Assembly (NCBI RefSeq): GCF_014268885.2
Contig: NZ_CP077095.1
Coordinates: 877,001-941,000 of the forward strand
Direction of reading: 5' to 3'
Origin: Pseudomonas xantholysinigenes
GTDB lineage: Bacteria > Pseudomonadota > Gammaproteobacteria > Pseudomonadales > Pseudomonadaceae
DNA length: 64,000 nt
Shown: one piece after another, positions 3,995 to 37,369 of the stretch
Layout: every line of letters begins with the position of its first letter
Numbering within the stretch: position 1 is the stretch's first letter
The notes under the pieces: generated by a model
What the model saw: only the letters and a program-made list of their open reading frames with translations
Database searches by the model: none
What the model was told of the DNA's origin: nothing
Translations under genes and position numbers: made by a program

Positions 3995-4909
3995 ATGAGC
4001 GAGCCGGTACGTCTGCAAGATCGAGTGGTGATTGTCACGGGGGCCGGTGGTGGCCTGGGCCGGGCCCATGCGCTGCTGTTCGCGGCAAGGGGCGCCAGGG
4101 TGGTGGTCAACGACCTGGGCGGCAGCACCCATGGCGAAGGCGCCAATGCCTCGGCGGCCGACCGGGTGGTGGAAGAGATCCGCGCCGCGGGCGGCACGGC
4201 AGTGGCCAACCATGATTCGGTGACCGATGGCGCCCGCATTGTCGAGCAGGCCCTGGACAGCTTCGGCCAGGTCGATGTGCTGGTGAACAACGCCGGCATC
4301 CTGCGCGACAAGACCTTCCACAAGATGGAAGACAGCGACTGGGAACTGGTCTACCGCGTACATGTCGAGGGTGCCTACAAGCTCACCCACGCCGCTTGGC
4401 CACACCTGCGCGCGCAGAACTGGGGGCGGGTGATCTTCACCTCGTCCACGTCGGGCATCTACGGCAATTTCGGCCAGGCCAACTACGGCATGGCCAAGCT
4501 CGGGCTCTACGGACTGACTCGCACCCTGGCCATCGAGGGGAGCAAGAATGGCATCCTGGTCAACGCCATTGCGCCAACCGGCGCGACCCGCATGACCGAA
4601 GGGCTGATCCCACCCCAGGTGTTCGAACAACTCAAGCCGGAACTGATCAGCCCGCTGGTGGTGTACCTGGGCAGCGAGCAGTGCCAGGACAGCGGCCAGT
4701 TGTTCGAGGTGGGTGGTGGCTGGGTCGGCAAAGTGCGTTGGGAGCGCAGCCTGGGGGTGGGCTTCGATCCGCGGGAGGGCTTCACGCCGGAACAGGTGGC
4801 GGACAACTGGGAGCGGATCGGCGATTTCGCAGACGCGGTGCATCCGCAGGACAGCCTGCAGGCGTTGCAGCAGATGATGGCGAACTTGCAGCGGTTCCCG
4901 TTGGTGTAA
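3995..4909 (+). CDS. SDR family oxidoreductase (HSD17B4/multifunctional-enzyme-type 3-hydroxyacyl-CoA dehydrogenase-like)
   Basis: A 304-residue short-chain dehydrogenase. The NAD(P)-binding motif TGAGGGLGRAHA starts at residue 15, NNAG is at 97-100, Ser150 and the YGMAK pair (Tyr163, Lys167) form the active site. The long insert after the first strand (NDLGGSTHGEGANASAADRV) is typical of the dehydrogenase domain of peroxisomal multifunctional enzyme 2 and bacterial relatives, which act on 3-hydroxyacyl-CoA or steroid substrates. No hydratase domain is fused. ATG 3995 follows a GGAG at 3982; a TTG at 3977 is less likely. Substrate specificity is inferred only from family resemblance. Confidence 0.85.
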   Translation: MSEPVRLQDRVVIVTGAGGGLGRAHALLFAARGARVVVNDLGGSTHGEGANASAADRVVEEIRAAGGTAVANHDSVTDGARIVEQALDSFGQVDVLVNNAGILRDKTFHKMEDSDWELVYRVHVEGAYKLTHAAWPHLRAQNWGRVIFTSSTSGIYGNFGQANYGMAKLGLYGLTRTLAIEGSKNGILVNAIAPTGATRMTEGLIPPQVFEQLKPELISPLVVYLGSEQCQDSGQLFEVGGGWVGKVRWERSLGVGFDPREGFTPEQVADNWERIGDFADAVHPQDSLQALQQMMANLQRFPLV

Positions 4910-4935
4910 GCAACATCTCTGAGAGGGTGCGACCT

Positions 4936-5022
4936 CTGTAGGAGCGGCTTGAGCCGCGATCACCCGCGAAGCGGGGGCCAGACACCACGTTGCCTGAATC
5001 GCGGCTAAAGCCGCTCCTACAG
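4936..5022. repeat. REP inverted pair
   Basis: Inverted copies of CTGTAGGAGCGGCTT...GCCGCGAT, with arms at about 4936-4960 and 4999-5022 around an inner CCCGCGAAGCGGG palindrome. It is the same element class as at 651-737 and sits just 3' of the SDR gene. Confidence 0.85.
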
Positions 5023-5102
5023 ATGATTTTGCACAGCTCAAGGAGCGGGCCTTGTACCGCCCCCCATAAGGCCATGAAAAAGCCGGTGATTCTTGCAGAA
5101 AT

Positions 5103-5130
5103 AAAAAAGGCCGCTGCAACCGCAGCGGCC
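5103..5130 (-). terminator. intrinsic terminator, minus strand, with no assigned gene
   Basis: On the minus strand a 9-bp GC-rich stem (GGCCGCTGC/GCAGCGGCC, loop GGTT) is followed directly by six T residues. No minus-strand protein gene ends here: the nearest minus-strand coding sequence to the right is at 8.6 kb. The terminator may end a small RNA that starts somewhere in 5135-5440. Confidence 0.6.
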
Positions 5131-5441
5131 AATCGAGACGTAGATCAAGGAGCTTCAAAATCAACGTCGGTGAACCATGGTGGCCCGAAAGGCGGGGGGG
5201 AGAGCACTTCGTGCCGACCAGTGAGGTAAGAATAAGCACTTGTTGCTGTGGGAAAAATACCGGCTTCTGACATTCTCTATTACATCGACCGTGATAATCC
5301 TTCCGTTTTCAGGCTGTAGGTCCAGAGCATTCTTCAGTCAGCGTAGGCTAGTTGAACTTTGGCCTGTCAGGCTTTCCCTCCTCCCTCCCTCTTTCACATT
5401 GTTCATTGTCCAGGCTCCTACACAAATATTGGAGAGTGAAC

Positions 5442-8400
5442 ATGAACTTCGAGCCGATTTTCCTAGCCGGAATCACCGATGCCGCTGACTTTCCCGGGCA
5501 GATGCTCGGTGCCGCCAACCTGAGCCACCCCGGTACGCAGGCACTGCAATTCAAGGACGATGTGCTCGGCGCACTGGCCTTGAGCACGCTGGCGCTCCAG
5601 GCACAGCTGAGCAGCGCGCCAAGGCCGCCCGAGGAAATCGAACAGTGGTGGTCGGAGCAGTCGGAGGTGTTATCCCAGCAGCTTCAGCAGCATGTGGCGC
5701 TTGAGCTCCAGGCCTGGGCGATGCAACGCCGCACTGAAAGGCTGGCCATCGAGGCACTGTTGCCCAATGACCAGGCCAACCCGGTCATCGCTTCCGTCTC
5801 GCTGCGCACACAGGACGACCTGAGCATTCGGATTCCGGGATGCGTGGCGATGCTTGCGCCTGGGGTGGACAGCAAGGCGCCCAAAGTGGTCTACGGCTTG
5901 GGTCTGGGTAAGTGGTTCGGTGTCGATCAGGACATGGCCAAGCAGATGCTTTGGGATTTGAAGCAGGATGAGCAATGGTTAGCTAACTTGCTGCCGAAAG
6001 AACATGAGGCTTTGTCGAGCGCGGACGCCGTCGAGCTTGAATTCGAACAACTGGACGAGCCATTTGAAGACTATCTGATTCGGGACATGCAGGTGCTTCA
6101 GGCATGGCTGGTCGAGCAGGCCTTGGATGAGGAAGTGGGTGATATCGAGGCGGCGGTGTCGCTGTACCCACTGGCCGGGCGGACCCAGAAGGCGGTGGCC
6201 GATCTACTCGAAACCTTCCGGCGCAGGCGGATGCCGGAGTGGATGCGCAACCTGTCGGACAAGGAGCGTGAGCGGATCGTCGAGCTCGACAAGGCGCTGG
6301 CCCAGGCGCAGGAGGCCCTTGTGCAGCACACCGGGCACACTGACTTTCACGGGTATGCCCTGGAGAAAATGAACAAATGGCTCGAGGCGGCCGGTGTCAT
6401 GGATGTTTTCGCGCAGGACATCGAACTGCACGTCAGCCATGACTTCGTTGCCGAGGGGCAGACGCATGCGACCAGCTTGCTGGAGTGGGTATGTGGCGGC
6501 GCCTATCTCGGGGATCACCTGACGGTGGTGTGCACCTGTGAAGACCTGCGGGATGTGTTGACGCCGGAGCACCTAGTGCAAATGGCGCAGGCGCTGGACC
6601 TTCAGGCGAGCTATGCCGAAATGGTCGAGAACGCTTACCAGGGGGATACCGCTGACACGCTGTTGCGCGAAACGCTGGACGCCAAGCTACGGCTGGCAAT
6701 CCAGGCGGCCGACTATCAAGGGCTGGACCGGCATGGGGTGGCACTGCTCGATGCTGCCTTGGAAAACGACTGGTCCGGCTCGGCGATGGGGGTCGCGAGA
6801 GTGTGCATCCTGCACGACGATCATCAGTTTGCCCTCACCGACCACCTGTGCCTGCACAACGACGAGGGTTACCTTCTCTACGCACCTGGCTCACCGAAAG
6901 GCGACTTCCGCTTCTTCACTTCGCTGGAGGCATTGAGCTTCGGCGTGGGTGAGCTGACCGCGACCGCCGAGGGTAACGCCTATCTGTTGAAGCATGGGCT
7001 GCATGACGACCGTCTTGAGCTGGGCAGGTTACTCCAGCTGATCCAGCGTCTGCCATCTGCCTGGTCTGGGCAAACCGTGGCGTTGCAGGAGGCGCAGGCC
7101 AAACGCTGGGATGAAGTGGTTGATACGTGGGCGGTAATGAAGAAGGAGAAGATCGAGGATGACCTCAAGGCGATCAGGCCTGAAGCGTATCCCCATGCCG
7201 ACGCGGACAAGCTGAAACGTGTGACGGACCTTGGCCATGAACTGCGGGTGCTGGCGCTGGAATATCAGGCCACCGTGAACATCCCCACCGCCGAAGAGTA
7301 CTTCCACAAGGCTGCGGATGACCTGCTCAATGTAGGGGGAGTGGGACCATGGATCGACCCCGACACCGTCGTGGTCGAGCAGGGCGATGGGGAGAGGCAG
7401 GCGTTGGTCAGCCTGCTGATCGAGTCCGGGGAGAGTTTCTTCACACCCAGGGTCGCCCGGCTTCACTCCACCATTGGTCAGGACCTGTCGCATCTTAACA
7501 GGAGGGTGATCGAGCGCAGCATGCGCGAGCGCACGATCCAGAAGAACTATCAGGCCGAACTGGAGCGCCTCTACCTTGGGGACGACGAGCGAATCGACAC
7601 CCCCGCGCTGGAGCTGCATCGGTTCTTGTTGGGGTTGACTATGCAACGTGATTGCCTGGTCGAGATCATGCGTGGATCACTCGAGGATCCGGCACATGTC
7701 CAGTGGCTTTCCAAGGTGTGTACGCAGTTCAACGAGGGTAGCTTCATCGAGGACTGCAATCTGGCCGAGCTGATGATCAATGGGTGCCCGGTGCAAGGGG
7801 CTTATCTGCTTGAGTCCGACGCGGCGCGAGGCACGTTGGTCTATCTGAGCGATGGTCCACAAGGGCGGTCTTTGCTGACTGCATGGGACTTTGCCCAGCA
7901 ATGGCAGGGGGACGACATCCAGGATTGGATGTTCAAGCATATCCCGGTGGCGCAGGAGGAAAAAATCTATGCGCTGATCAGGGACCTTGAGGACGACAAC
8001 GAGAACGATCCGACGGGTTTCAAGGGGCACGAGCGAATACTCTTCTCGTTGCGGACCTATCGCAATATCGACCACCTGGGGGCTTCGCTACGTGGCCAAC
8101 TGCGGCAACTGCTCGATGAGGCCGAACGCAATGCCCGGGGTGTGCTGGCGCGTATCGGCTGGCAGATCTACTCGCACCTGTGGACTATCCTCAAGATCGT
8201 GACATTGCCATTTCCGCCAGCGCGGCTGGCCATTGCATTCGTCGATGCGGTCTACGCCTTCTACAAGGCGGCCGTGGCGCTTCGCGATGGCGAGCATTTC
8301 GAGGCAATCAAGCTCTATGTGACCGGCGTGCTCGCCTTCCCGGGCATTGTCGATGCACTGAAACCGCTGGCGCAAACGGTGCTCATCACGCCAGTCATGA

Positions 8401-26433: not shown

Positions 26434-28836
26434 ATGAAGTTCACCCCGCGTTGCGCTCCGCTCTGGTTCGGTCTCAGCGTCTTGCCCGCCCTGGTTTGCG
26501 CCCCCCAGGCACTGGCCGCGCAGCAGAGCCAGGTTTACAGTTTCGCCCAGCCTGGCCTGCCGCTGGCCCAGGCGCTCAACGCCTTCAGCCGCGTCACCGG
26601 GCAGAGCGTGGTCTACACCCTCAGCCTGCCAGACCGACAAGCCCCGGCCCTGAACGGCACCTATGCCGCCGAGCAGGCGCTGCAGCAACTGCTGGCTGGC
26701 GCCGGCCTGACCTGGCGCCGCCTGGATGCGCGAACCCTGACCCTGGAGCCGCTGGACACCGGCGGCGCGCTCGACCTGCAGGCGATCAACATCGACGCGC
26801 AGATGGACAGCTACAGCTACCAGCCACCGGCCAGCGCCGCGATCATGCGCGGGCAGGGGCCGAGCCAGGACATTCCCCAGGCCATCAACCTGGTCCCGGC
26901 CCAGGTGCTGCGCGACCAGGCCCCGCGCAACCTCGACGACGCGCTGTACAACGTCAGCGGCATCACCCAGGGCAACAACTTTGGTGGCACCGCCGACACG
27001 GTGATGAAACGTGGTTTTGGCGACAACCGCGACGGCTCGATCATGCGTGATGGCATGCCGGTGGTGCAGGGGCGCGCGCTCAATGCCAGCACCGAACGGG
27101 TCGAAGTGCTCAAGGGCCCGGCCTCGTTGCTGTACGGCATCCAGGATCCGGGCGGGGTGATCAACGTGGTCAGCAAGCGCCCGCAGCTGCAGGCCTACAA
27201 TGCCCTGACCCTGCGTGGCTCGAGCTATGGCAGCGGCAAGAACGGCAGCGGCGCCGGCCTGGACAGCACCGGCGCGCTGGGTGACAGCAACCTGGCCTAC
27301 CGGCTGATCGTCGACCATGAGGACGAGGACTACTGGCGCAACTACGGTGTGCACCGTGAGTCGCTGGTGGCGCCGTCGCTGGCCTGGTACGGCGAGGATA
27401 CCCAGGTGGTGCTGGCCTACGAACACCGCGAGTTTCTCTACCCGTTCGACCGCGGCACGGCCTTTGGCAGCGACGGTCATCCGCTGCCGATCCCGGCCAG
27501 CCGCCGGCTGGACGAACCGTTCAACGACATGGAAGGGCGCTCCGACCTGTATCGGCTGGAGGTCGACCACAGGTTGAGCGAGGACTGGAAGCTGCACGTG
27601 GGCTACAGCTTCAACCGCGAGACCTACGATGCCAGCCAGGTGCGGGTGACCGGTGTCAACGAGCAGAAGGGCACCCTGTCGCGCAGTATCGATGGCACCC
27701 GGGGCGCCCTGAGCCGCGACCAGTTCGCCAGCGTGAGCCTCAATGGCAGCGTCGAGCTGGCAGGCATGCGCCACGACCTGGTATTCGGTGCCGACCACGA
27801 AGACCGCAAGGTCTATCGCGCCGACCTGATCCGCCAGAACAGCCGCTCGACCTTCAGTTACCTGAACCCGGTCTATGGTCGCGAAGTGCAAGGCACCTCG
27901 GTGCGCGCCACCGACAGCGACCAGACCGACAAGCTGCGTACCGACGCGTTGTTCATGCAGGATGCCTGGCACCTGGACGAGCACTGGATCCTGGTTGCCG
28001 GCGGGCGCTTCCAGCAATACGACCAGTACGCCGGGCGTGGGCGACCGTTCAACGTCAACACCGACACCAGCGACCAGACCTGGGTGCCCCATGCCGGGGT
28101 GGTGTACAAGGTCGATGAGCAGCTGTCGTTGTATGGCAGCTACAGCGAGTCGTTCAAACCCAACTCGACCATCGCGCCACTGAGCATCGGCGGCGATCGC
28201 ACCCTGACCCTGGACTCCGGGATCGCCCCGGAGCAAGGCAAGGCCTGGGAGGTGGGCGCCAAGCTCGACATGCCGGGCGCCCTGACTGGCACCTTGGCCC
28301 TGTTCGACATCACCAAGCGCAATGTGCTGGTGGCCGACGGCGACAGCCTGCCGGGCACCATCCTCTACAGCAACGCGGGCGAGGTGCGCTCGCGCGGTGT
28401 CGAACTGGACCTGAGCGGTCAGCTCAGCGAGCGCTGGAGCCTGATCGGCGCCTACGCCTTCACTGACGCCGAGGTGACCAAGGACCCGCAACTCAAGGGC
28501 AATCGCCTGCAGAACGTGGCCCGGCACAGTGGCTCGCTGTCGGCGGTGTATGACTATGGCAGCCTGTTGGGCGGCGACCGCCTGCGTCTGGGGGCTGGCG
28601 CGCGCTACGCGGGTGAGCGTGCGGGGAACGCGACCAATGACTTCGACCTGCCGGCCTACACCGTGGCCGATGCCTTCGCCAGCTACGAAACGAAGCTGGA
28701 CGAGCACAAGGTGCGCCTGCAATTGAACGTGAAGAACCTGTTCGACAAGGTGTACTACAGCTCGGCGGTGAACCGGTACTTCGTCGCGGTGGGGGATGCG
28801 CGGCAGGTGAGCCTGTCGAGTACCTTGGAGTTCTAA
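26434..28836 (+). CDS. TonB-dependent siderophore receptor with STN domain
   Basis: An 800-residue outer-membrane receptor. A signal peptide ends near ALA (about residue 30), followed by the STN signalling domain (about 40-110, PLAQALNAFSRVTGQSVVYTLS), the plug with NVSGITQGNNFGGTADTVMK and RVEVLKGPASLLYGIQDPGG, and a barrel that ends in F (STLEF). The plug and barrel resemble receptors for hydroxamate-type siderophores (FoxA/FiuA/FpvA class); the ligand cannot be fixed from sequence alone. ATG 26434 is used because it gives the signal peptide; a TTG at 26383 adds no signal. It is the target gene of the second surface-signalling system and is probably under the sigma encoded two genes upstream. 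Confidence 0.9.
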   Translation: MKFTPRCAPLWFGLSVLPALVCAPQALAAQQSQVYSFAQPGLPLAQALNAFSRVTGQSVVYTLSLPDRQAPALNGTYAAEQALQQLLAGAGLTWRRLDARTLTLEPLDTGGALDLQAINIDAQMDSYSYQPPASAAIMRGQGPSQDIPQAINLVPAQVLRDQAPRNLDDALYNVSGITQGNNFGGTADTVMKRGFGDNRDGSIMRDGMPVVQGRALNASTERVEVLKGPASLLYGIQDPGGVINVVSKRPQLQAYNALTLRGSSYGSGKNGSGAGLDSTGALGDSNLAYRLIVDHEDEDYWRNYGVHRESLVAPSLAWYGEDTQVVLAYEHREFLYPFDRGTAFGSDGHPLPIPASRRLDEPFNDMEGRSDLYRLEVDHRLSEDWKLHVGYSFNRETYDASQVRVTGVNEQKGTLSRSIDGTRGALSRDQFASVSLNGSVELAGMRHDLVFGADHEDRKVYRADLIRQNSRSTFSYLNPVYGREVQGTSVRATDSDQTDKLRTDALFMQDAWHLDEHWILVAGGRFQQYDQYAGRGRPFNVNTDTSDQTWVPHAGVVYKVDEQLSLYGSYSESFKPNSTIAPLSIGGDRTLTLDSGIAPEQGKAWEVGAKLDMPGALTGTLALFDITKRNVLVADGDSLPGTILYSNAGEVRSRGVELDLSGQLSERWSLIGAYAFTDAEVTKDPQLKGNRLQNVARHSGSLSAVYDYGSLLGGDRLRLGAGARYAGERAGNATNDFDLPAYTVADAFASYETKLDEHKVRLQLNVKNLFDKVYYSSAVNRYFVAVGDARQVSLSSTLEF

Positions 28837-28843
28837 GGACTGG

Positions 28844-28946
28844 GACCGCTTTGCGGTCCTTTCGCGGCACAAGGCCGCTACAGGAGACCGCAATCAACTG
28901 TAGGAGCGGCCTTGTGCCGCGAAAGGGCCGCAAAGCGGCCCCCAAA
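28844..28946. repeat. REP pair
   Basis: Two inverted units: GACCGCTTTGCGGTC...TTTCGCGGCACAAGGCCGCTACAG (28848-28882) and TGTAGGAGCGGCCTTGTGCCGCGAAAGGGCCGCAAAGCGGC (28900-28940). They lie between the convergent receptor and AraC genes. Confidence 0.8.
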
Positions 28947-28947
28947 T

Positions 28948-29823
28948 TCAACAGGAAAACGCTGCCCGGTACGCCCCCGGCGTCGCCCCCAGCGCCTGCC
29001 TGAAGCGGTTGCTGAAATGGCTGGCGCTGGCAAACCCGCACGACAACGCCACTTCACCCAGTGGCAACGCGCCCATGCGCAGCAGTTGGCAGGCGCGGTG
29101 CAGCCGTCGAGCCAGCAGGTACTGGTGCGGTGGCAGGCCGAAACTCGCCCGGAACATCCGCGCAAAGTGGTACGCGGACAGGTTGCAGCGCAGCGCCAGC
29201 TCTTCCAGCGTCAGCGGCTGCTCGAGGTTGGCCTCGATGAAGTCCAGCAGTTGCCGACGCTGGTGCGGCGCCAGCCCGCCCTTGAGTTTCAGCCCTTGGC
29301 GCAGGCCGACCTGGTTGAGCACGGCGTGATCAATGATGGCGTGGGCCAGGCTGCTGGCCAGCAGACGTTCGGCGGGCTCGGCCCAGTCCAGGCCAATTAG
29401 CTGGCGAAAGCGCCGGGCCTGTTGCGGGTCGTCGAGGAAGGTCGCCTCGCGCAGTTGCAGCTCCCGGGGCTCGCGGTCCAGCAGGCGGGTGCAGCCGAGG
29501 GCGAACTGTTCCTCGCTGATATACAGGTGGGCGAGGCGGATCGAGCCGTTGATCACCCAGTTCGATTCGTGGCCGGCGGGCATCACGCACAGCTTGTCCG
29601 GCGCGCCGCGGTCGCTCGGGCGCTGGCGGCGGAAGGTGCCGGTGCCGTCGGCGATATAGCACGACAAGGTGTGGTGGCTGGGGGCCTGGTAGTCGCGGGC
29701 ATCGTCGCGGTTGCTCCACAACGCCGCGGCCAGCCCATCGCCTAGCTGCGCGCTCAGCTCCAGCCGGGTGTGGGGCGAGGCGTTAAGGGCATTGAAGACC
29801 TGCAGGTGGTCGAGTGGGGGCAT
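28948..29823 (-). CDS. AraC-family transcriptional regulator
   Basis: A 291-residue regulator. The N-terminal cupin-like effector domain (about residues 20-170) precedes a two-helix-turn-helix AraC domain (LLDFIEANLEQPLTLEELAL and AYHFARMFRASFG, then LGEVALSCGFASASHFSNRFRQALGATPGAYR, about 190-290). ATG 29823 gives the usual domain boundaries; the frame remains open upstream into a REP element, which is unlikely to be coding. It is divergent from the EamA-family transporter gene and may regulate it; the effector is unknown. Confidence 0.88.
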   Translation of the reverse strand: MPPLDHLQVFNALNASPHTRLELSAQLGDGLAAALWSNRDDARDYQAPSHHTLSCYIADGTGTFRRQRPSDRGAPDKLCVMPAGHESNWVINGSIRLAHLYISEEQFALGCTRLLDREPRELQLREATFLDDPQQARRFRQLIGLDWAEPAERLLASSLAHAIIDHAVLNQVGLRQGLKLKGGLAPHQRRQLLDFIEANLEQPLTLEELALRCNLSAYHFARMFRASFGLPPHQYLLARRLHRACQLLRMGALPLGEVALSCGFASASHFSNRFRQALGATPGAYRAAFSC

Positions 29824-30050: not shown

Positions 30051-30947
30051 ATGAACCTGTCGCTCTATCTGCTCACCGTCCTGATCTGGGGCACCACCTG
30101 GATCGCCCTGAAGTGGCAATTGGGCACGGTCGCCATCCCGGTGTCGATCGTCTACCGCTTCGCCCTGGCCGGGCTGATCCTGTTCGCCTTCCTGCTGCTC
30201 ACCCGCCGCCTGCAACCGATGAACCGGCGTGGCCACCTGGTGTGCCTGGCCCAAGGCCTGTGCCTGTTCTGCGTCAACTTCATGTGTTTTCTCACCGCCA
30301 GCCAATGGGTGGCCAGCGGCCTGATCGCCGTGGTGTTCTCCACCGCGACGCTGTGGAACGCCATCAATGCGCGGATTTTCTTCGGCCAGAAGATCGCCGC
30401 CAATGTCCTCGGTGGTGGCGCCCTGGGCTTGCTCGGGCTGGGCTTGCTGTTCTGGCCGGAACTGTCGCACCACGCCGCCAGCCGCGAGACCCTGTACGGC
30501 CTGGGGCTGGGCCTGCTTGGCACCCTGTGCTTCTCGGCGGGCAACATGCTTTCCAGTGTGCAGCAAAAGGCCGGGCTCAGGCCGCTGACCACCAATGCCT
30601 GGGGCATGCTCTATGGCGCCTCGATGCTGGCGCTGTACTGCGTGCTCAGCGGCATCCCTTTCACCATGGAATGGAATGCCCGCTACGTCGGCGCGCTGCT
30701 GTACCTGGTGATCCCGGGCTCGGTGATCGCCTTCACCGCCTACCTGACCCTGGTCGGGCGCATGGGGCCTGAGCGGGCGGCGTACTGCACGGTGCTGTTC
30801 CCGCTGGTCGCGTTGAATGTGTCGGCGCTGGCCGAGGGCTACCAGTGGACGGCGCCGGCGTTGCTGGGGCTGGTGGCGGTGATGGCGGGGAATGTGCTGG
30901 TGTTTCGCAAGCCGACGCGCAAGACGGGGATGGCGCTGGTCAGGTGA
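30051..30947 (+). CDS. EamA-family (DMT) transporter
   Basis: A 298-residue inner-membrane permease with ten hydrophobic segments in two EamA repeats (about residues 3-135 and 150-290). The opening LYLLTVLIWGTTWIALKWQLG with the conserved GTTW motif fits a drug/metabolite transporter. ATG 30051 is preceded by GAGG. The substrate is unknown. Its last 135 bp or so (about 30776-30912) are repeated with about four differences at 33203-33340, as a fragment next to a truncated dehydrogenase gene; the downstream C-terminal residues differ (VFRKPTRKTG here, VFRKPSQRGQ in the fragment). Confidence 0.88.
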   Translation: MNLSLYLLTVLIWGTTWIALKWQLGTVAIPVSIVYRFALAGLILFAFLLLTRRLQPMNRRGHLVCLAQGLCLFCVNFMCFLTASQWVASGLIAVVFSTATLWNAINARIFFGQKIAANVLGGGALGLLGLGLLFWPELSHHAASRETLYGLGLGLLGTLCFSAGNMLSSVQQKAGLRPLTTNAWGMLYGASMLALYCVLSGIPFTMEWNARYVGALLYLVIPGSVIAFTAYLTLVGRMGPERAAYCTVLFPLVALNVSALAEGYQWTAPALLGLVAVMAGNVLVFRKPTRKTGMALVR

Positions 30948-31088
30948 GCACAGGCAAGCGTCTGTACGTGTTGCGCTGAACGGCAGTCGCCACTCGGTGC
31001 GGTGTTATGCCGAGCCTTGTGGTGACTGCTGTTCAGCTGTACTGGGTCATGTATTCCAGGTCAACCGCGTGTCAAGAAGACACCGTGT

Positions 31089-32606
31089 TCAAGAGTTTTT
31101 ATCCAAAATTTTCTGATTCTGTTTTTCAGCAGTAAGGAGGTCATAAGCTTCCGCAGCACTCAGTAGTGGGACAGGGAGGACATAGAAACCCTCCAAGACG
31201 TAGAGATCGGACTGTCCTTCGACCATTCGGGCATTGTCGGTAATCCTGCCCTTCGCTTGGAATTCGAGGGTGAGCTTGGCCACGGAAAACGATGAGCCTC
31301 CCTTAGCCGGAGGGAAAAATACGCCCTCTTCGTTGATGCTGCCGCCCCCATGAATGATTTTCCATGTGAGTATGTCATCGGGATAAAGTTCGAATTCAGG
31401 CACCAGCTTCAACGCGTTGTCGGTTATGTCTATACTAAAGCTCAGCGCGCTGCTGGTTGTAGTGAGGAATGCTGTTTCATAGGTTGAGCTGTTGTACCGT
31501 GCGGTTGCTGTTTCATAGATGAAGAATTCATCGCGCGAGGGCGATGGCGAAGAGTAGCTATTGTTTTCAATTTTACCTTTTGCTCCGGCCTCAAGCTCCC
31601 AGGCACCCGTGCCTTCAGGGAACAGACCAAGGTCAACTTGAGCACCAGGTGGGAGCACGAAAAGAGGATAGTAGGGCAGACCTGAGGGTTCATGCTTCCC
31701 AGGCTGACTCTTTCCTCCGATTGGTTCGAACACGCCAACCCGCACCGCCGGGCCTTGTACGACTTTCTGTTGCGTGTTGAACTTCTGCCCAGGCATGAGC
31801 AACTGCGGGATGGCAGTGCATAGTTTTTCAGGAGAAGGGACATCTTTGTTGATGATCACAGAGGCGCCCAGCGGTGTAGTGTAGGGCCCAGGAAAGTTCA
31901 GCCCCGCGCCTTCTCCCACCAGCAGGAGGTTATTTACTGATGGAGGGGGAAGCAGAGTAGGGGATACAAATGCGAGAATCTGATCTGGATTTACGGCGTC
32001 TGCATAGGCCTGGAAGGTAACGTCCTTTGGAAGGGCGTCCGATGGCAGTCTGGGCAGTGAGTCATTATGGATCTCGAAGTTCCTGAAAATGCTTTGGTAC
32101 AGGTGTCCGTCAGAAACATTTCCTCCTGATTCTACGGAGAATTTAATGTCGTGGTCTTTCCAATTCAGACTAAGATCTCCATTGGATTTGGCGGAGAACT
32201 CGGCATTTTTTTCAATATCGATGACCAGTTTCTTAGGTGAGCTTAGTGCGCCAATTTTTTTAATTGTGAACGGAGGCTTGTTTCCAGAAAGGTGGAGAAC
32301 ATCCTCCCTGGAAATCGCTCTATTAAGCTGGTTGTTGTCGGTCTGAAAGAAAATTGACGGCTTCCCGGTTTCGCTGACTAAGTACATTGCAGGTTTTTCG
32401 TTTACGATGATCGGTAACCGAAAACGGTTTGCTACTCCCTCGTCGAGCAACTCTAGCTCTTTATACTTCCAGAAGGACTCAAGCTTACCATTCTCAAAAG
32501 CCGCCAGCGCGTCAGTATGCTTGATATACCCTTCGTCACTCTCTGCAAATGAGACCAGCTGATTGAAGCTGATCCCGCTTTGGTTGTCGTTCTTATCGTT
32601 GCTCAT
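31089..32606 (-). CDS. orphan protein of unknown function, AT-rich gene
   Basis: A 505-residue soluble-looking protein with no signal peptide or clear membrane segment. I recognise no family. It has many beta-favouring stretches (NGDLSLNWKDHDIKFSVESG, ALSFSIDITDNALKLVPEFE) and a Pro/Gly-rich centre (LPYYPLFVLPPGAQVDLGLF). Codons are clearly more AT-rich at third positions than in both flanks, suggesting acquisition. The start at ATG 32606 is followed by a polar, Asn/Asp/Gln-rich N-terminus. It lies in the gap between the intact EamA gene and the fragment pair at 32773-33376, so it is the cargo of one arm of the duplication mosaic. Confidence 0.7.
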   Translation of the reverse strand: MSNDKNDNQSGISFNQLVSFAESDEGYIKHTDALAAFENGKLESFWKYKELELLDEGVANRFRLPIIVNEKPAMYLVSETGKPSIFFQTDNNQLNRAISREDVLHLSGNKPPFTIKKIGALSSPKKLVIDIEKNAEFSAKSNGDLSLNWKDHDIKFSVESGGNVSDGHLYQSIFRNFEIHNDSLPRLPSDALPKDVTFQAYADAVNPDQILAFVSPTLLPPPSVNNLLLVGEGAGLNFPGPYTTPLGASVIINKDVPSPEKLCTAIPQLLMPGQKFNTQQKVVQGPAVRVGVFEPIGGKSQPGKHEPSGLPYYPLFVLPPGAQVDLGLFPEGTGAWELEAGAKGKIENNSYSSPSPSRDEFFIYETATARYNSSTYETAFLTTTSSALSFSIDITDNALKLVPEFELYPDDILTWKIIHGGGSINEEGVFFPPAKGGSSFSVAKLTLEFQAKGRITDNARMVEGQSDLYVLEGFYVLPVPLLSAAEAYDLLTAEKQNQKILDKNS

Positions 32607-32772
32607 TGCCTTGCCCTCGATAGATGGAGATATCGTTTTATCGTGGCTGGCCGATCGCCGAAACTGGTGAAAATGATAGGTCTCGGCGTTTGTCTGGGGG
32701 GCAACGAGTGAAAGGTAGGCTATTGATAATAGTCAGTAAAAGGTATCGCTCGCAGCCGGCGATGCCTGTCCC

Positions 32773-33207
32773 TTACTTCTGCCACACCTGCGGATTCACC
32801 AGATCCCGCGGCCGCTCATCCAGCAACGCCGCCCGCAGGTTGTCCAGCGCCCGGGTGGCCATGGCCTCGCGGGTCTCGGCGGTGGCCGAGCCGATGTGCG
32901 GCAGGGTCAAGGCGTTGGGCAGTTTGAACAATGGCGAATCGGCGAATGGCTCCTTTTCGTACACATCCAGCTCGGCGCCGCGAATCGTGCCGTTTTGCAG
33001 CGCCTCGACCAGCGCCGCCTCGTCCACCACCGGCCCGCGGGCGATGTTGATCAGGAATGCGCTGGGCTTCATCAGCTTCAGCTCGCGGGCACCGATCAGC
33101 TTGCGGGTGGCGTCGGACAGCGGCACCACGATGCCGACGAAATCGGCTTCGGCCAGCAGTTGGTCCAGGCTGCGGTACAGCGCGCCCAGCTCCTGCTCCA
33201 GCGCGGC
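32773..33207 (-). pseudogene. 3' fragment of a 2-hydroxyacid dehydrogenase gene
   Basis: A truncated second copy of the dehydrogenase at 36395-37369. It encodes the C-terminal 145 or so residues (from ALEQELGALYRSLDQLLAEA to NPQVWQK and stop). It differs from the intact copy at scattered residues, for example AELDVYEKEPFAD against AGLDVYEKEPLSD, and DERPRD against GERPRD. The 5' half, including the NAD-binding GLGNIG motif, is missing. At about 33200-33210 the sequence runs straight into the 3' end of the EamA gene. The longest reading frame with its own ATG (33129) would lack the cofactor site, so it cannot be a working dehydrogenase. Confidence 0.88.
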
Positions 33208-33376
33208 CTATTGCACGGTGCTGTTCCCGCTGGTGGCGTTGAATGTGTCGGCGCTGGCCGAGGGCTACCAGTGGACGGCGCCGGCGTTGCTGGGGCTGGT
33301 GGCGGTGATGGCGGGGAACGTGCTGGTGTTTCGCAAGCCGTCGCAACGTGGCCAGGGCGCCCTGGCCAGAAGCTAG
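33203..33376 (+). pseudogene. 3' fragment of the EamA transporter gene
   Basis: From about 33203 the sequence matches the end of the EamA gene at 30773-30912 (AAYCTVLFPLVALNVSALAEG and on), with about four mismatches over 135 bp, then diverges before its own stop at 33376. The first nine helices are absent. The break with the dehydrogenase fragment falls in a GCGGCC/GCGGCG-like stretch shared by both parents. This fragment and the one on the minus strand form a tandem-duplication-type junction. Confidence 0.88.
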
Positions 33377-33459
33377 TCAGGTACAGCTGGTATTCCTGAC
33401 AGGTGCGGCCAGCCAGCGGGTGGCTAGACTAGCCCAGGGGTGACTGACTGGGGAGCGCA

Positions 33460-34980
33460 ATGGCCGTTTTGGCAATTATGGACCATCGACTGTCTCGCAG
33501 GGATGCGTGGCTGTTGTGCTGTATGGCTATCGGGTTGCATATCTTGCCTCTGGTGCTGGCAGACCTGGCCTACATCGACGATGTCTGGCGTTCACAATTG
33601 GCGGGGCAGTTGCAGGATCCGGGGGATTCCTGGACGGGCCAGGGCAGGGTGTTGGTGGATGTGCTGTACAGCGGGCTGGGTTTCGACAAGGCGACGCCGA
33701 ACATTTATCCACTGCCACTGCTGCTGGCCATGGTGGTGGCTGCCAAGGCATTGTCGGACCTGGCGTTTCACTACTTCGAGGCGCCCACGGGCACAGCGCT
33801 GTTGGTGGTCTTGCCCCTGTGGTACAACCCCTTCTTCTTGCAGAACCTGTCCTACCAGTACGACGGTGCCGCCATGGCATTGGCCCTTGCCGCGAGTGTC
33901 ATGGCCATCACGCAAGGGGCACGGCACCGGTGGGGCACAGGCCTGGCGATGGTGCTGGTTGCGGCGGCGGCCAGCCTTTATCAGATAAGTGTCAATGTCT
34001 TCGCAGGGTTGTGCTGCATCGAAGTCATTCGTCAGGTCGCCGCGCATGCGCCTTTGCGGCAGGTGGTGCGGCAGTTGGCGCGGCGCCTGGTTCAGTTGCT
34101 GGGGGGCGGCCTGCTTTACCTGCTCACGGGATATCGACTGATTGATGTTCCACGCACGGCGTTGCTTCCACTGGACCACGCATGGCCGGAAACCCTGGCG
34201 CGGCGCCTGCTGTTGGCCTTCGAGCATGTGGGCCTGTTGGTCACGACCGGTACAGCCTGGCTGTTCCTCATCCTCGCTGGCCTGGCTGGCGCGACGCTGG
34301 TGCTGCGCTCCTGGCAGGTGCTGCGCAGTGCGCGCCCGGTGATATCGAGGGTGGCGTTGTTGGCGTTGCTTTGGTGCTCCTTGGTGGCGCTCATGCTCCT
34401 GGTGCCGGGCATCTCGCTGCTGTTCGACTATTACAACCAAGGCGCGCGATTGCTCATGGGGGTGGGCCCCGCCATGGTGCTGGTGCTGTTGCTGGCACAT
34501 GAGCGGCTTGCTGGCCTGCATGGGCGACTGGCCTGGTTCACGGTCATCCCCTTGGTGTTCATGCTGTCGTTTTCCTATGCCTATGGGCGGCTGCTGGTGG
34601 CGCAAAAGGAAATGGAGCGGGTCATGACCTCCAGTATCGCGCAAGCCATCCAGGCCAACCCTGCGGTGTATGACGCCAAGCGCTTCTACATCCTCGGCCA
34701 TGACAGCCGTCAAGTGTGGTTGCCCGCCGGCAGCGGCTCGTTCCAGGCCATGCCAGCCTTGCGGTATGTGTTCGCCATCGCTTACCAGGTGCTGCCCGAA
34801 ATGATGCCGAGAGTGGGCATGACGACGTTCGGCAGCCACCCGCCCCTGCAAAAGGCGCAAGTGCTGGCGTCCAGCCCTCAGCCCCAAGTGGATGGAAAGT
34901 TCTTTGCCATTCATCGGGTCGGCGACGTCGGCTATGTGTTGATGAAGCCGATTATCGACGCAGAGGCTTTTCACAAATGA
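33460..34980 (+). CDS. GtrII-type membrane glucosyltransferase (serotype conversion)
   Basis: A 506-residue polytopic membrane protein (ten or more helices) of the glucosyltransferase-II-like family (Glucos_trans_II), the serotype-specific enzyme in gtr clusters. The first loop IDDVWRSQLAGQLQDPGDSW has the D-D pair after helix 1 (about residues 39-40) typical of GT-C-type enzymes, and NIYPLPLL and NLSYQYDGAAMALALAAS are conserved. It would add a glucosyl residue from undecaprenyl-phosphate-glucose to O-antigen or another glycan in the periplasm. GGGGAGCG at 33450-33457 supports ATG 33460. The gene overlaps the GtrA gene by 4 bp. Confidence 0.83.
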   Translation: MAVLAIMDHRLSRRDAWLLCCMAIGLHILPLVLADLAYIDDVWRSQLAGQLQDPGDSWTGQGRVLVDVLYSGLGFDKATPNIYPLPLLLAMVVAAKALSDLAFHYFEAPTGTALLVVLPLWYNPFFLQNLSYQYDGAAMALALAASVMAITQGARHRWGTGLAMVLVAAAASLYQISVNVFAGLCCIEVIRQVAAHAPLRQVVRQLARRLVQLLGGGLLYLLTGYRLIDVPRTALLPLDHAWPETLARRLLLAFEHVGLLVTTGTAWLFLILAGLAGATLVLRSWQVLRSARPVISRVALLALLWCSLVALMLLVPGISLLFDYYNQGARLLMGVGPAMVLVLLLAHERLAGLHGRLAWFTVIPLVFMLSFSYAYGRLLVAQKEMERVMTSSIAQAIQANPAVYDAKRFYILGHDSRQVWLPAGSGSFQAMPALRYVFAIAYQVLPEMMPRVGMTTFGSHPPLQKAQVLASSPQPQVDGKFFAIHRVGDVGYVLMKPIIDAEAFHK

Positions 34981-35345
34981 GCCTGGTGCGCTTCAACCGT
35001 TATGCCCTGATTGGCGTCGGCAACACGCTGATCCATTGGCTGACCTTTCTGCTGCTCCACCTGCTGATGGGGTTGTCGCAGGGGGCGAGCAACCTGCTGG
35101 CGTTTCTGTTGGCGGCGAGCCTGTCCTATTTCATGAATGCCCGCTACACCTTTGCCGTCAGGGCTCGCACGAGGCGCTACCTGGTGTTCCTGATCGGCAT
35201 GGGTAGCCTGAGCCTGGCCCTGGGTGCGTTTTCTGATGCTGTCCGTCTGTCTCCGTGGTTGACCTTGGTGACCTTTTCGATGGTCAGTCTTGTTGTCGGT
35301 TATACCTTTTCACACACCGTGGTGTTCAAGAGGAGGGACCCATGA
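34977..35345 (+). CDS. gtrA: GtrA-family flippase
   Basis: A 122-residue membrane protein with four helices. [20 protein letters not shown] (about residues 5-24) and [22 protein letters not shown] (about 41-62) are hallmarks of GtrA, which translocates undecaprenyl-phosphate-glucose across the inner membrane. ATG 34977 overlaps the upstream stop (ATGA), and the gene overlaps gtrB by 4 bp; the three genes form a tightly coupled cluster. Confidence 0.92.
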
Positions 35346-36271
35346 ACATTACCTTGGTGGTGCCGCTGTACAACGAGCAGGAAACCCTGGAGCGTTTCTA
35401 CCGAACGGTACGTGGCGAACCCTCGTTGCAGGGCAAGACCGTGGAAATCGTTTTCGTCAACGACGGCAGCACCGACGACACCGAGGCCATCTGCGCCGAG
35501 CTGGCGGCCAGGGACGAGTGGGTCACGGCAATCACCTTCTCGCGCAATTTCGGCAAGGAGTCGGCGTTGTTCGCCGGGCTGGAGCACGCCGAAGGCGACG
35601 CGGTGGTGCCGATCGATGTCGACCTGCAAGATCCCATCGAAGTCGTCGCGCAGATGATCGAGCGCTGGCAGGGCGGCGCCGACGTGGTGCTGGCCAAGCG
35701 CCGTAGCCGGCTTGCCGATACGCGGTTCAAACGCTGGACGGCGCGGCTGTACTATCGCCTGCATAACGCTATTGCCGCAGTGCCGATCGAAGAAAACGTC
35801 GGCGATTTTCGCCTGCTCGACCGTAAGGTGGTGGCCGCGATCCGGCAGATGCCGGAGCAGCAGTTGTTCATGAAGGGAGTGCTGTCGTGGGTGGGGTTTC
35901 GCACCGAAATCATCGAGTACGACCGCCAGGAGCGGGCGGCGGGCAACAGCAAGTTCAGCTTCTGGCGCCTGTGGAACCTGGCGTTGGACGGCATCACCTC
36001 GTTCAGCACGGTGCCGTTGCGGCTGTGGACCTATATCGGTGGCGGTGTGTCGTTGTTCGCGCTGTTGTACGCGGCGTTCCTGGTGCTGGACAAACTGCTG
36101 TTCGGCAACGACCTGCCGGGGTATCCGTCACTGATGACGGCGATCCTGTTTCTCGGTGGGGTGCAGTTGATCGGGATTGGCATCCTGGGCGAGTACATCG
36201 GGCGGATCTACCAGGAAACCAAGCACCGGCCGCGCTATGTGGTGCGCAAGGTTTTGGGTAGGCGGCGGTAA
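35342..36271 (+). CDS. gtrB: GtrB-type bactoprenol glucosyltransferase
   Basis: A 309-residue family 2 glycosyltransferase with two C-terminal membrane helices (about residues 228-250 and 262-285). [18 protein letters not shown] at the N-terminus, [16 protein letters not shown], and PIDVDLQDP (the D-x-D-type metal site, about 92-100) match GtrB/GT2 enzymes that move glucose from UDP-glucose to undecaprenyl phosphate on the cytoplasmic side. It supplies the lipid-linked donor for GtrA and the GtrII-type enzyme. The stop is 20 bp before a REP cluster. Confidence 0.92.
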
Positions 36272-36276
36272 TCGCA

Positions 36277-36373
36277 GTGATGCCATTCGCGGGTAAACCC
36301 GCTCCCACAGGTGTGGCGCATGCCCTGAGGTCGGCGCGGTCCCTGTGGGAGCGGGTTTACCCGCGAAAGGGCC
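36277..36373. repeat. REP inverted pair
   Basis: TTCGCGGGTAAACCCGCTCCCACAG (36287-36311) faces CTGTGGGAGCGGGTTTACCC (36343-36362), with spacer GTGTGGCGCATGCCCTGAGGTCGGCGCGGTCC between. The spacer is shared with the clusters at 16.5 and 43.6 kb. Confidence 0.85.
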
Positions 36374-36394
36374 AGTGTAGGCAGCGAAAAGCGT

Positions 36395-37369
36395 TCAGCC
36401 TTTCCACACCTGAGGATTCACCAGGTCCCGCGGCCGCTCACCCAGCAACGCCGCGCGCAGGTTGTCCAGCGCCCTGTTGGCCATGGCTTCGCGGGTCTCG
36501 GCGGTGGCCGAGCCGATGTGCGGCAGGGTCAGGGCGTTGGGCAGCTTGAACAGTGGCGAATCGCTTAGCGGCTCCTTCTCATACACATCCAGCCCGGCGC
36601 CGCGAATCGTGCCGTTTTGCAGCGCCTCGACCAGCGCCGCCTCGTCCACCACCGGCCCGCGGGCGATGTTGATCAGGAATGCGCTGGGCTTCATCAGCTT
36701 CAGCTCGCGGGCACCGATCAGCTTGCGGGTGGCGTCGGACAGCGGCACCACAATGCAGACGAAATCGGCTTCGGCCAGTAGTTGGTCCAGGCTGCGGTAT
36801 TGCGCGCCCAGCTCCTGCTCCAGCGCGGCCTTGCGGCTGTTGCCGGCATACAGCACGTGCATGTTGAAGCCGAAGCGACCACGCCGGGCGATGGCCGCGC
36901 CGATGTTGCCCAGGCCGACGATGCCCAGCGTCTTGCCATGCACATCGCTGCCGAACTGCGCCGGGCCCACGGTAGCCTGCCACTGGCCGGCCTTGGTCCA
37001 GGCGTCCAGCTCGGCGGTGCGCCGGGCGCAGCCCATGACCAGGGCGAAGCCCAGGTCGGCGGTGCTTTCGGTGAGCACGTCGGGGGTGTTGGTCAGGGCG
37101 ATGCCGCGTTCGTTGAAGTAGTCCAGATCGTAGTTGTCGTACCCCACCGAGACGCTGGACACCACCTCGAGCTTGCCCGCGCCTTCGAGCTGCGCGCGGC
37201 CGAGTTTGCGGCCGACGCCGATCAGGCCGTGGGCCTCGGGCAGGGCTTCGTTGAACTGGGCGGCGATATCGCCCAGTTTCGGGTTAGGCACGATCAGGTT
37301 GAAGTCTTGCTGCAGGCGTTCGGCCATGGCCGGGGTGATGCGGCTGAAGGCCAGGACGGTCTTTTTCAT
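36395..37369 (-). CDS. 2-hydroxyacid dehydrogenase (glyoxylate/2-ketogluconate reductase type)
   Basis: A 324-residue NAD(P)H-dependent D-2-hydroxyacid dehydrogenase. VSSVSVGYDNYDLDYF is the substrate-side motif (about residues 71-86), GIVGLGNIGAAIARRG the Rossmann fold (about 148-163), NIARGPVVDE holds the catalytic Arg, and LPHIGSATAETR the catalytic His (about 280-291). Members reduce glyoxylate, hydroxypyruvate or 2-ketogluconate (GhrB/TkrA type). The product starts MKKTVLAFSR. A truncated, slightly different copy lies at 32773-33207, so this locus took part in a duplication. A LysR gene follows upstream on the same strand. Confidence 0.88.
   Translation of the reverse strand: MKKTVLAFSRITPAMAERLQQDFNLIVPNPKLGDIAAQFNEALPEAHGLIGVGRKLGRAQLEGAGKLEVVSSVSVGYDNYDLDYFNERGIALTNTPDVLTESTADLGFALVMGCARRTAELDAWTKAGQWQATVGPAQFGSDVHGKTLGIVGLGNIGAAIARRGRFGFNMHVLYAGNSRKAALEQELGAQYRSLDQLLAEADFVCIVVPLSDATRKLIGARELKLMKPSAFLINIARGPVVDEAALVEALQNGTIRGAGLDVYEKEPLSDSPLFKLPNALTLPHIGSATAETREAMANRALDNLRAALLGERPRDLVNPQVWKG

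What the first reader, a model, noticed from the sequence alone, without database searches (positions are those of the whole stretch)
30051..37369. Duplication scar with two different cargos: EamA - orphan - (dehydrogenase 3' / EamA 3' junction) - gtr - dehydrogenase
The sequence shows the 3' part of the minus-strand 2-hydroxyacid dehydrogenase gene (32773-33207) joined directly to the 3' end of the EamA gene (33203-33376). Intact copies of both lie at the outer edges (30051-30947; 36395-37369). This is the novel-joint geometry of a tandem duplication. But the two intervals hold unrelated cargo: an AT-rich orphan gene on one side and a GtrII-GtrA-GtrB cluster on the other. The gene copies differ by a few percent (about four mismatches in 135 bp for EamA), more than a fresh duplication would show. 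So the interval between EamA and the dehydrogenase may be a variable slot where a foreign version of the slot was added next to the resident one.
Basis: partly seen in the sequence, partly recalled or inferred. Interest (0 to 1): 0.78.

Follow-up and report, generated by a model that had tools for sequence, protein, structure and literature searches.

The report
Scar of two merged gene slots
In this Pseudomonas genome the gap between two ordinary genes, which in related species is usually empty or holds one swappable gene set, holds two unrelated gene sets joined by broken ends of the flanking genes, most likely because a relative's version was added beside the resident one instead of replacing it.

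Summary
The 3' part of the 2-hydroxyacid dehydrogenase gene (DH) is fused at 33203-33209 to the 3' end of the EamA gene. Intact copies lie outside, with a lone gene on one side and gtrII-gtrA-gtrB on the other. Reading 116 distinct EamA-DH intervals from Pseudomonas shows a truly variable slot. Of the 53 most similar, 35 hold no cargo, 14 hold gtrII-A-B, 2 gtrII without a full gtrA/B, and 2 the lone gene's family. One of these genomes (L051) carries a second DH|EamA scar with other breakpoints. The DH copies differ at between-species level in one part (dS 0.29), are identical over 157 bp, then differ again; the EamA copies differ by 2.9%. The joint lies on a probable 7-bp microhomology. Best reading: additive lateral capture, one homologous crossover in a flanking gene plus one microhomology joint. 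Which half is the newcomer is unresolved. The mechanism is known in kind; the slot was not found in the papers searched. It is a legible natural fossil of additive capture, not a new system.

The parts
30051..30947 (+). intact EamA-family transporter gene, left wall of the slot
   Evidence: Pfam EamA E 6e-23
31089..32606 (-). cargo 1: 505-aa gene, lower G+C than its surroundings, no Pfam match at E 0.001; family also in this slot in L051 and L053
32773..33209 (-). truncated 3' part of the dehydrogenase gene, still an open frame from the joint to its stop
   Evidence: 94-95% to the intact copy; reading frame
33203..33209 (.). novel joint on GCGGCCT, shared by DH (36825-36831) and by EamA alleles of 7 of 116 relatives
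33203..33376 (+). truncated EamA 3' end
   Evidence: 4 of 138 sites differ from the intact copy
33460..34980 (+). cargo 2: gtrII-like glucosyltransferase gene
   Evidence: Pfam GtrII E 2e-14; PHROG GtrC-like O-antigen conversion
34977..35345 (+). cargo 2: gtrA
   Evidence: Pfam GtrA/DPMS E 6e-14
35342..36271 (+). cargo 2: gtrB
   Evidence: Pfam glycosyltransferase 2 E 7e-31; PHROG GtrB-like
36283..36370 (.). inverted pair of a dispersed repeat (REP-like, name recalled); not at the joint
   Evidence: I3; many copies in the own genome
36395..37369 (-). intact 2-hydroxyacid dehydrogenase gene, right wall of the slot
   Evidence: Pfam 2-Hacid_dh_C E 1e-60
36595..36751 (.). 157-bp tract identical to 32973-33129, with diverged sequence on both sides: candidate crossover or gene-conversion tract

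Best explanation
The EamA-DH interval is an exchangeable slot in the P. putida group. Normally recombination in the two wall genes swaps the whole content and leaves one clean cargo. Here a slot version from a related lineage was added instead of swapped: one end entered by a homologous crossover in a wall gene, the other was closed by a microhomology joint between the inside of DH and the inside of EamA. The product keeps one complete copy of each wall gene, both cargos, and a scar of truncated wall genes between them. The simplest physical route is a fragment EamA 3'-cargo-DH 3' whose trimmed ends were joined (DH|EamA) and which then integrated by a single crossover. Shown: the scar, single-cargo relatives of both kinds, the patchy divergence of the DH copies, and a second scar with other breakpoints in L051. 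Inferred: that the event was lateral, the 7-bp overlap (the donor allele is unknown), the crossover site, and the circular or linear state of the DNA. Which half is the newcomer is open; I lean to the lone-gene half at about 0.55.
For: Slot with empty, gtr-only and lone-gene-only versions; the gtr state changes at least 11 times on a tree of 52 relatives. DH copies: dS 0.287 in segment a, within the range seen to other species over the whole shared part (0.21-0.41), 0 over 157 bp, 0.166 after it; no identical run of 157 bp among 1378 pairs of relatives, longest 95. In segment a the fragment groups with L031 and L032 apart from the intact copy (100/92). A shared run of 7 bp spans about 0.1% of random DH/EamA joints. 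Independent scar in L051, whose DH piece is 97% identical to L060 and 90% to its own DH. In E. coli conjugation, trimmed linear DNA that recircularised gave partial duplications by single crossover (passages of PMC3240628).
Against: The EamA copies differ by only 2.9%, below the 1st percentile between species (3.6%), so that part looks like one lineage or was converted. An AU test does not reject that the two DH copies are sisters in segment a (p 0.23), and the next larger group there joins the intact copy to fragment + L031 + L032 (88/82). Nearest relatives change along the locus, so donor and resident cannot be named. No conspecific strain was available.
Confidence: 0.72

Rival explanations
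1. Tandem duplication within one lineage: an unequal exchange between DH and EamA at the microhomology duplicated the slot, and later ordinary homologous recombination with foreign DNA replaced the cargo of one unit with part of its DH.
For: Same novel-joint geometry; the EamA copies are close (2.9%); 157 bp of DH are identical; an AU test does not reject DH copies as sisters (p 0.23).
Against: Needs two events; DH segment a has dS 0.29 and b2 0.17; a second genome has the same geometry with a DH piece from another lineage; none of 116 relatives has a same-cargo duplication.
Confidence: 0.2
2. Classical linear homology-facilitated illegitimate recombination with the homologous anchor in DH: gtr DNA joined at a random end to resident DH and recombined inside DH.
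For: One-sided homology plus a 3-10 bp microhomology is its usual signature (introduction passage of PMC3240628); known in Pseudomonas stutzeri (cited in PMC5361080 and PMC2884548, passages).
Against: It usually deletes resident DNA, here resident DNA is duplicated; the copies should be identical from crossover to joint, but 5 of 80 sites differ. An anchor in EamA instead avoids the second objection. I count this as a sub-route of the best explanation, not added to its odds.
Confidence: 0.15
3. Assembly chimera of two strains or a merge error.
For: Two alternative versions of one slot side by side is what a bad merge could look like; reads could not be seen.
Against: Overlap assemblers do not join on about 7 bp; the joint lies inside two genes; the DH fragment has more amino-acid-changing differences than the intact copy to 7 of 7 relatives compared, so it has aged; another genome has its own scar.
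Confidence: 0.03

Closest known systems
Single-crossover integration of trimmed, recircularised linear DNA in E. coli conjugation (PMC3240628; passages seen)
   Same: Partial duplication of the homologous locus (109-950 bp there; about 430 and 140-174 bp here) with a short-homology or end-to-end joint
   Different: A laboratory plasmid there; here chromosomal slot DNA and no view of the intermediate
Sequential displacement of T6SS effector-immunity modules in Vibrio cholerae (PMC5361080; passages seen)
   Same: A new module is placed beside remnants of the old one at a conserved anchor; one-sided homology plus illegitimate joining proposed
   Different: There the old module is displaced and immunity genes are kept; here both walls stay intact and the cargos are a gtr cluster and an unknown gene
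Transformation-made merodiploids of Streptococcus pneumoniae (PMC3784515; passages seen)
   Same: Tandem duplication created while homologous DNA is taken up, by unequal pairing
   Different: Joints there lie in long repeats and duplications span about 100-900 kb; here about 7 bp and a few kb
Replacement flexible genomic islands (PMC4033161; passages seen)
   Same: Different gene content at one location, swapped through similar flanks, often surface glycosylation
   Different: Those are swapped cleanly; here a second version was added

Membership tests
Homology-facilitated illegitimate recombination product | 3-10 bp microhomology at the illegitimate joint | tested here: met
   GCGGCCT, 7 bp, assuming a donor EamA allele like that of 7 of 116 relatives
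Homology-facilitated illegitimate recombination product | insertion coupled with deletion of resident DNA | tested here: not met
   both wall genes and two cargos are kept; flank DNA is duplicated
Homology-facilitated illegitimate recombination product | homologous crossover at the other end | tested here: inconclusive
   157-bp identical tract in DH with diverged sides; later gene conversion would look alike
Single-crossover integration of a recircularised fragment | partial duplication of the flank with one complete copy kept | tested here: met
Single-crossover integration of a recircularised fragment | joint formed on the incoming molecule, so both sides of it come from the donor | tested here: inconclusive
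   nearest relatives of the pieces are mosaic
Replacement flexible genomic island | different gene content at one location between related genomes | tested here: met
   116 distinct intervals
Replacement flexible genomic island | no mobile-element gene at the borders | tested here: met
   Pfam on the six genes shows no integrase or transposase; no tRNA in the window
Sequential-displacement effector-immunity array | effector and immunity genes as cargo | tested here: not met
   cargo is gtrII-A-B and a gene without a known family
O-antigen gtr cassette (gtrA-gtrB-gtr[type]) | conserved GtrA/GtrB with a variable third enzyme | tested here: met
   17 full clusters: GtrII 39-90%, GtrA 53-92%, GtrB 72-97% identical to the window's
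O-antigen gtr cassette (gtrA-gtrB-gtr[type]) | modifies O-antigen | not testable with these tools
   needs LPS analysis of a deletion mutant

The most novel reading that the evidence does not exclude
The slot grows by a recurrent rather than accidental route: slot contents enter (or leave and re-enter) as small circles closed between DH and EamA, so that cargos are stacked side by side, a cassette-like system without an integrase. Both genomes with a full-length member of the lone-gene family in the slot also carry a scar (2 of 2), while none of the other 99 intervals longer than 60 bp does.
Probability: 0.08. Interest if true: 0.65.

Novelty: new member of a known kind. Interest (0 to 1): 0.42.

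Why it matters
It is a natural record of additive, rather than replacing, gene acquisition through conserved neighbours, with a readable joint and a second case at the same place. A small slot without mobile-element genes, with empty, single and double versions, could be used to measure how often incoming DNA adds a second cargo instead of swapping it, and it ties surface-glycosylation (gtr) clusters to such exchange in the P. putida group.

Tried and rejected
Phage or plasmid origin of the lone gene: tblastn against the plasmid and phage collections gave no match; one viral-contig scan with it and one with GtrII gave no confirmed relative; GtrII against phages none. These scans reach close relatives only. 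Defence function: no PADLOC match for three family members. Solved structure by sequence: none at E 1. Fold: no structure prediction was obtained, so 'Ig-like' is only a guess from YTPP-like motifs seen by eye and a sub-threshold Big_9 hit (E 0.21) in the distant relative L154. Naming donor and resident from nearest relatives along the locus: mosaic, no clear answer. A remnant of an older scar beside the lone gene (30915-31091, 32607-32773): no match to the 116 loci at E 0.001. Literature on this slot: no paper held 4 of the 5 terms EamA, hydroxyacid dehydrogenase, GtrA, Pseudomonas putida, genomic island; 6 papers held six broader terms and none looked relevant in the listing.
Full report
What is there. 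Left to right: an intact EamA transporter gene (30051-30947), a gene of lower G+C on the minus strand (31089-32606), a truncated 3' part of a 2-hydroxyacid dehydrogenase gene (32773-33209, minus), a truncated EamA 3' end (33203-33376), gtrII-gtrA-gtrB (33460-36271), an inverted pair of a dispersed repeat, and the intact dehydrogenase (36395-37369, minus).

The slot in relatives. I read the EamA-DH interval in 160 fetched loci (L031-L150, L166-L205). In 29 no EamA gene was found left of DH within reach; they were dropped without asking why (10 of them were fetched). The other 131 records give 116 distinct intervals. These loci are the best DH matches of two searches, not a random sample. Among the 53 whose DH protein is at least 90% identical, 35 hold no cargo (under 350 bp), 14 hold gtrII-gtrA-gtrB, 2 hold gtrII without a full gtrA/B, and 2 hold members of the lone-gene family (L051, L053). 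Over all 17 full clusters, GtrII is 39-90%, GtrA 53-92% and GtrB 72-97% identical to the window's; L040 is the top row each time and the other 16 GtrII lie at 39-54%. On a tree of the two genes right of DH (52 labelled loci, 15 with gtr; one of the 53, which lacked them in its stretch, was left out) the gtr state changes at least 11 times. Of the 50 intervals with DH below 85%, 32 hold 597-743 bp and one 6579 bp without gtr.

The lone gene. As a single sequence it matches 5 of 398 Pseudomonas genomes, its own included; only G156 is strong (E 2.5e-17; the other three 6e-5 to 7e-4), and that match lies in the same slot and orientation. A three-row profile (window, L051, L053) matches 54 of 398 at E 0.01, the three source genomes included. 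In 8 of 8 further loci that I looked at, the homologue sits beside the C-terminal end of an acyl-CoA dehydrogenase gene, so the family has a second usual home. No Pfam hit reached its cut-off, and there was no PADLOC, PHROGs or PDB match. Function unknown.

Divergence of the copies. DH segment a (36404-36594): 18 of 191 sites differ, dS 0.287; b1 (36595-36751): 0 of 157; b2 (36752-36831): 5 of 80, dS 0.166. Between the 53 relatives the same segments differ by medians of 12, 14 and 17.5%, so b2 is below the between-species 5th percentile (8.8%) while a is above it (7.3%). None of 1378 pairs of relatives has an identical run of 157 bp in this region (longest 95); with the 23 differences placed at random, 12 of 20,000 shuffles reach it. 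So two DH alleles of partly different ancestry stand side by side and are identical in one tract, through the crossover itself or later conversion. In segment a the fragment groups with L031 and L032 (100/92) apart from the intact copy, but the next larger group holds these three and the intact copy (88/82), and an AU test does not reject the two copies as sisters (p 0.23). The EamA copies differ by 4 of 138 (dS 0.11), below the 1st percentile between species (3.6%): a closer donor, or conversion. The DH fragment is still open but shows more amino-acid-changing differences than the intact copy to 7 of 7 relatives compared, and 4 private alleles against 2 (of 53 relatives): it is the decaying copy.

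The joint. DH reads AGC-GCGGCCT-TGCGG, EamA alleles of 7 of 116 relatives (among them L060 and L056) read GCGGCCT-ATTGC, and the window reads AGC-GCGGCCT-ATTGC. A shared run of at least 7 bp spans about 0.1% of random DH/EamA joints (five alleles tried). The window's own intact EamA differs inside this stretch, and the donor allele is not known, so the true overlap could be shorter.

A second scar. Of 116 intervals, 100 are longer than 60 bp and were searched for pieces of EamA or DH; one, L051 (same sequence as the named record L082, Pseudomonas sp. S37), has a DH 3' piece of about 102 bp joined to an EamA 3' piece, then the lone-gene homologue and the intact DH. Its breakpoints differ from the window's; its DH piece is 97% identical to L060 and 90% to its own DH; its EamA piece has an internal deletion. 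So the event type happened at least twice at this place.

Mechanism. Swapping by recombination in both walls leaves no scar and explains the clean single-cargo relatives. The scar needs one homologous and one short-homology joint. Linear homology-facilitated illegitimate recombination usually deletes resident DNA and, anchored in DH, would leave the copies identical from crossover to joint, which they are not. A trimmed and recircularised fragment integrating by single crossover gives partial duplications with a complete copy kept, as in E. coli conjugation (a PCR product typical of duplication in 56 of 60 Lac- clones, 14 sequenced; passages of PMC3240628). With that crossover in EamA the lone-gene half would be the newcomer and intact DH wholly resident, which fits the nearest relatives of DH slightly better. 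Nearest relatives shift along the whole region, so I give this direction only about 0.55.

Comparison. The geometry works like sequential displacement of T6SS modules in Vibrio (PMC5361080, passages) and like a replacement island that was added to rather than swapped (PMC4033161, passages). In P. donghuensis HYS a gtrA/B/II cluster contributes to killing of C. elegans (PMC8509367, passages); in the HYS record here (L097) the slot holds 557 bp without gtr, and a gtr-like match in the same genome lies elsewhere on that scaffold.

Verdict. Known in kind, unusually legible, with a second example at the same place. After re-checking, the odds of the main reading were set at 0.72 rather than about 0.75 because of the 88/82 grouping.

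Noticed in passing
L208, L209, L210, L212, L213, L215, L216, L217: In 8 of 8 of these loci the homologue of the 505-aa lone gene sits beside an acyl-CoA dehydrogenase gene (ACDH_C), perhaps a second variable slot.
   Followed up: partly
L148, EamA-DH interval of 6579 bp: In P. weihenstephanensis the slot holds one open frame of 2149 aa; not identified.
   Followed up: no
L100, L049, L056: Degraded or partial gtr versions of the slot: L100 has the start of gtrII and the end of gtrB only; L049 and L056 have gtrII without gtrA/gtrB.
   Followed up: no
L127, L142, L195 and similar loci with DH below 85%: The slot often holds about 0.7 kb of lower G+C with one small open frame (169-205 aa in these three), shared by many fluorescens-like genomes.
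   Followed up: no
own genome G000, contig 1, 2829574-2830369: Seven copies, about 119 bp apart, of the dispersed repeat that also lies between gtrB and DH.
   Followed up: no
window 4000-7000 and 27600-29600: Nearest relatives change sharply along the window: the L034/L035 genomes at 4000-7000, L031/L032/L040 at much of the receptor-like and AraC genes, a sign of frequent recombination.
   Followed up: partly
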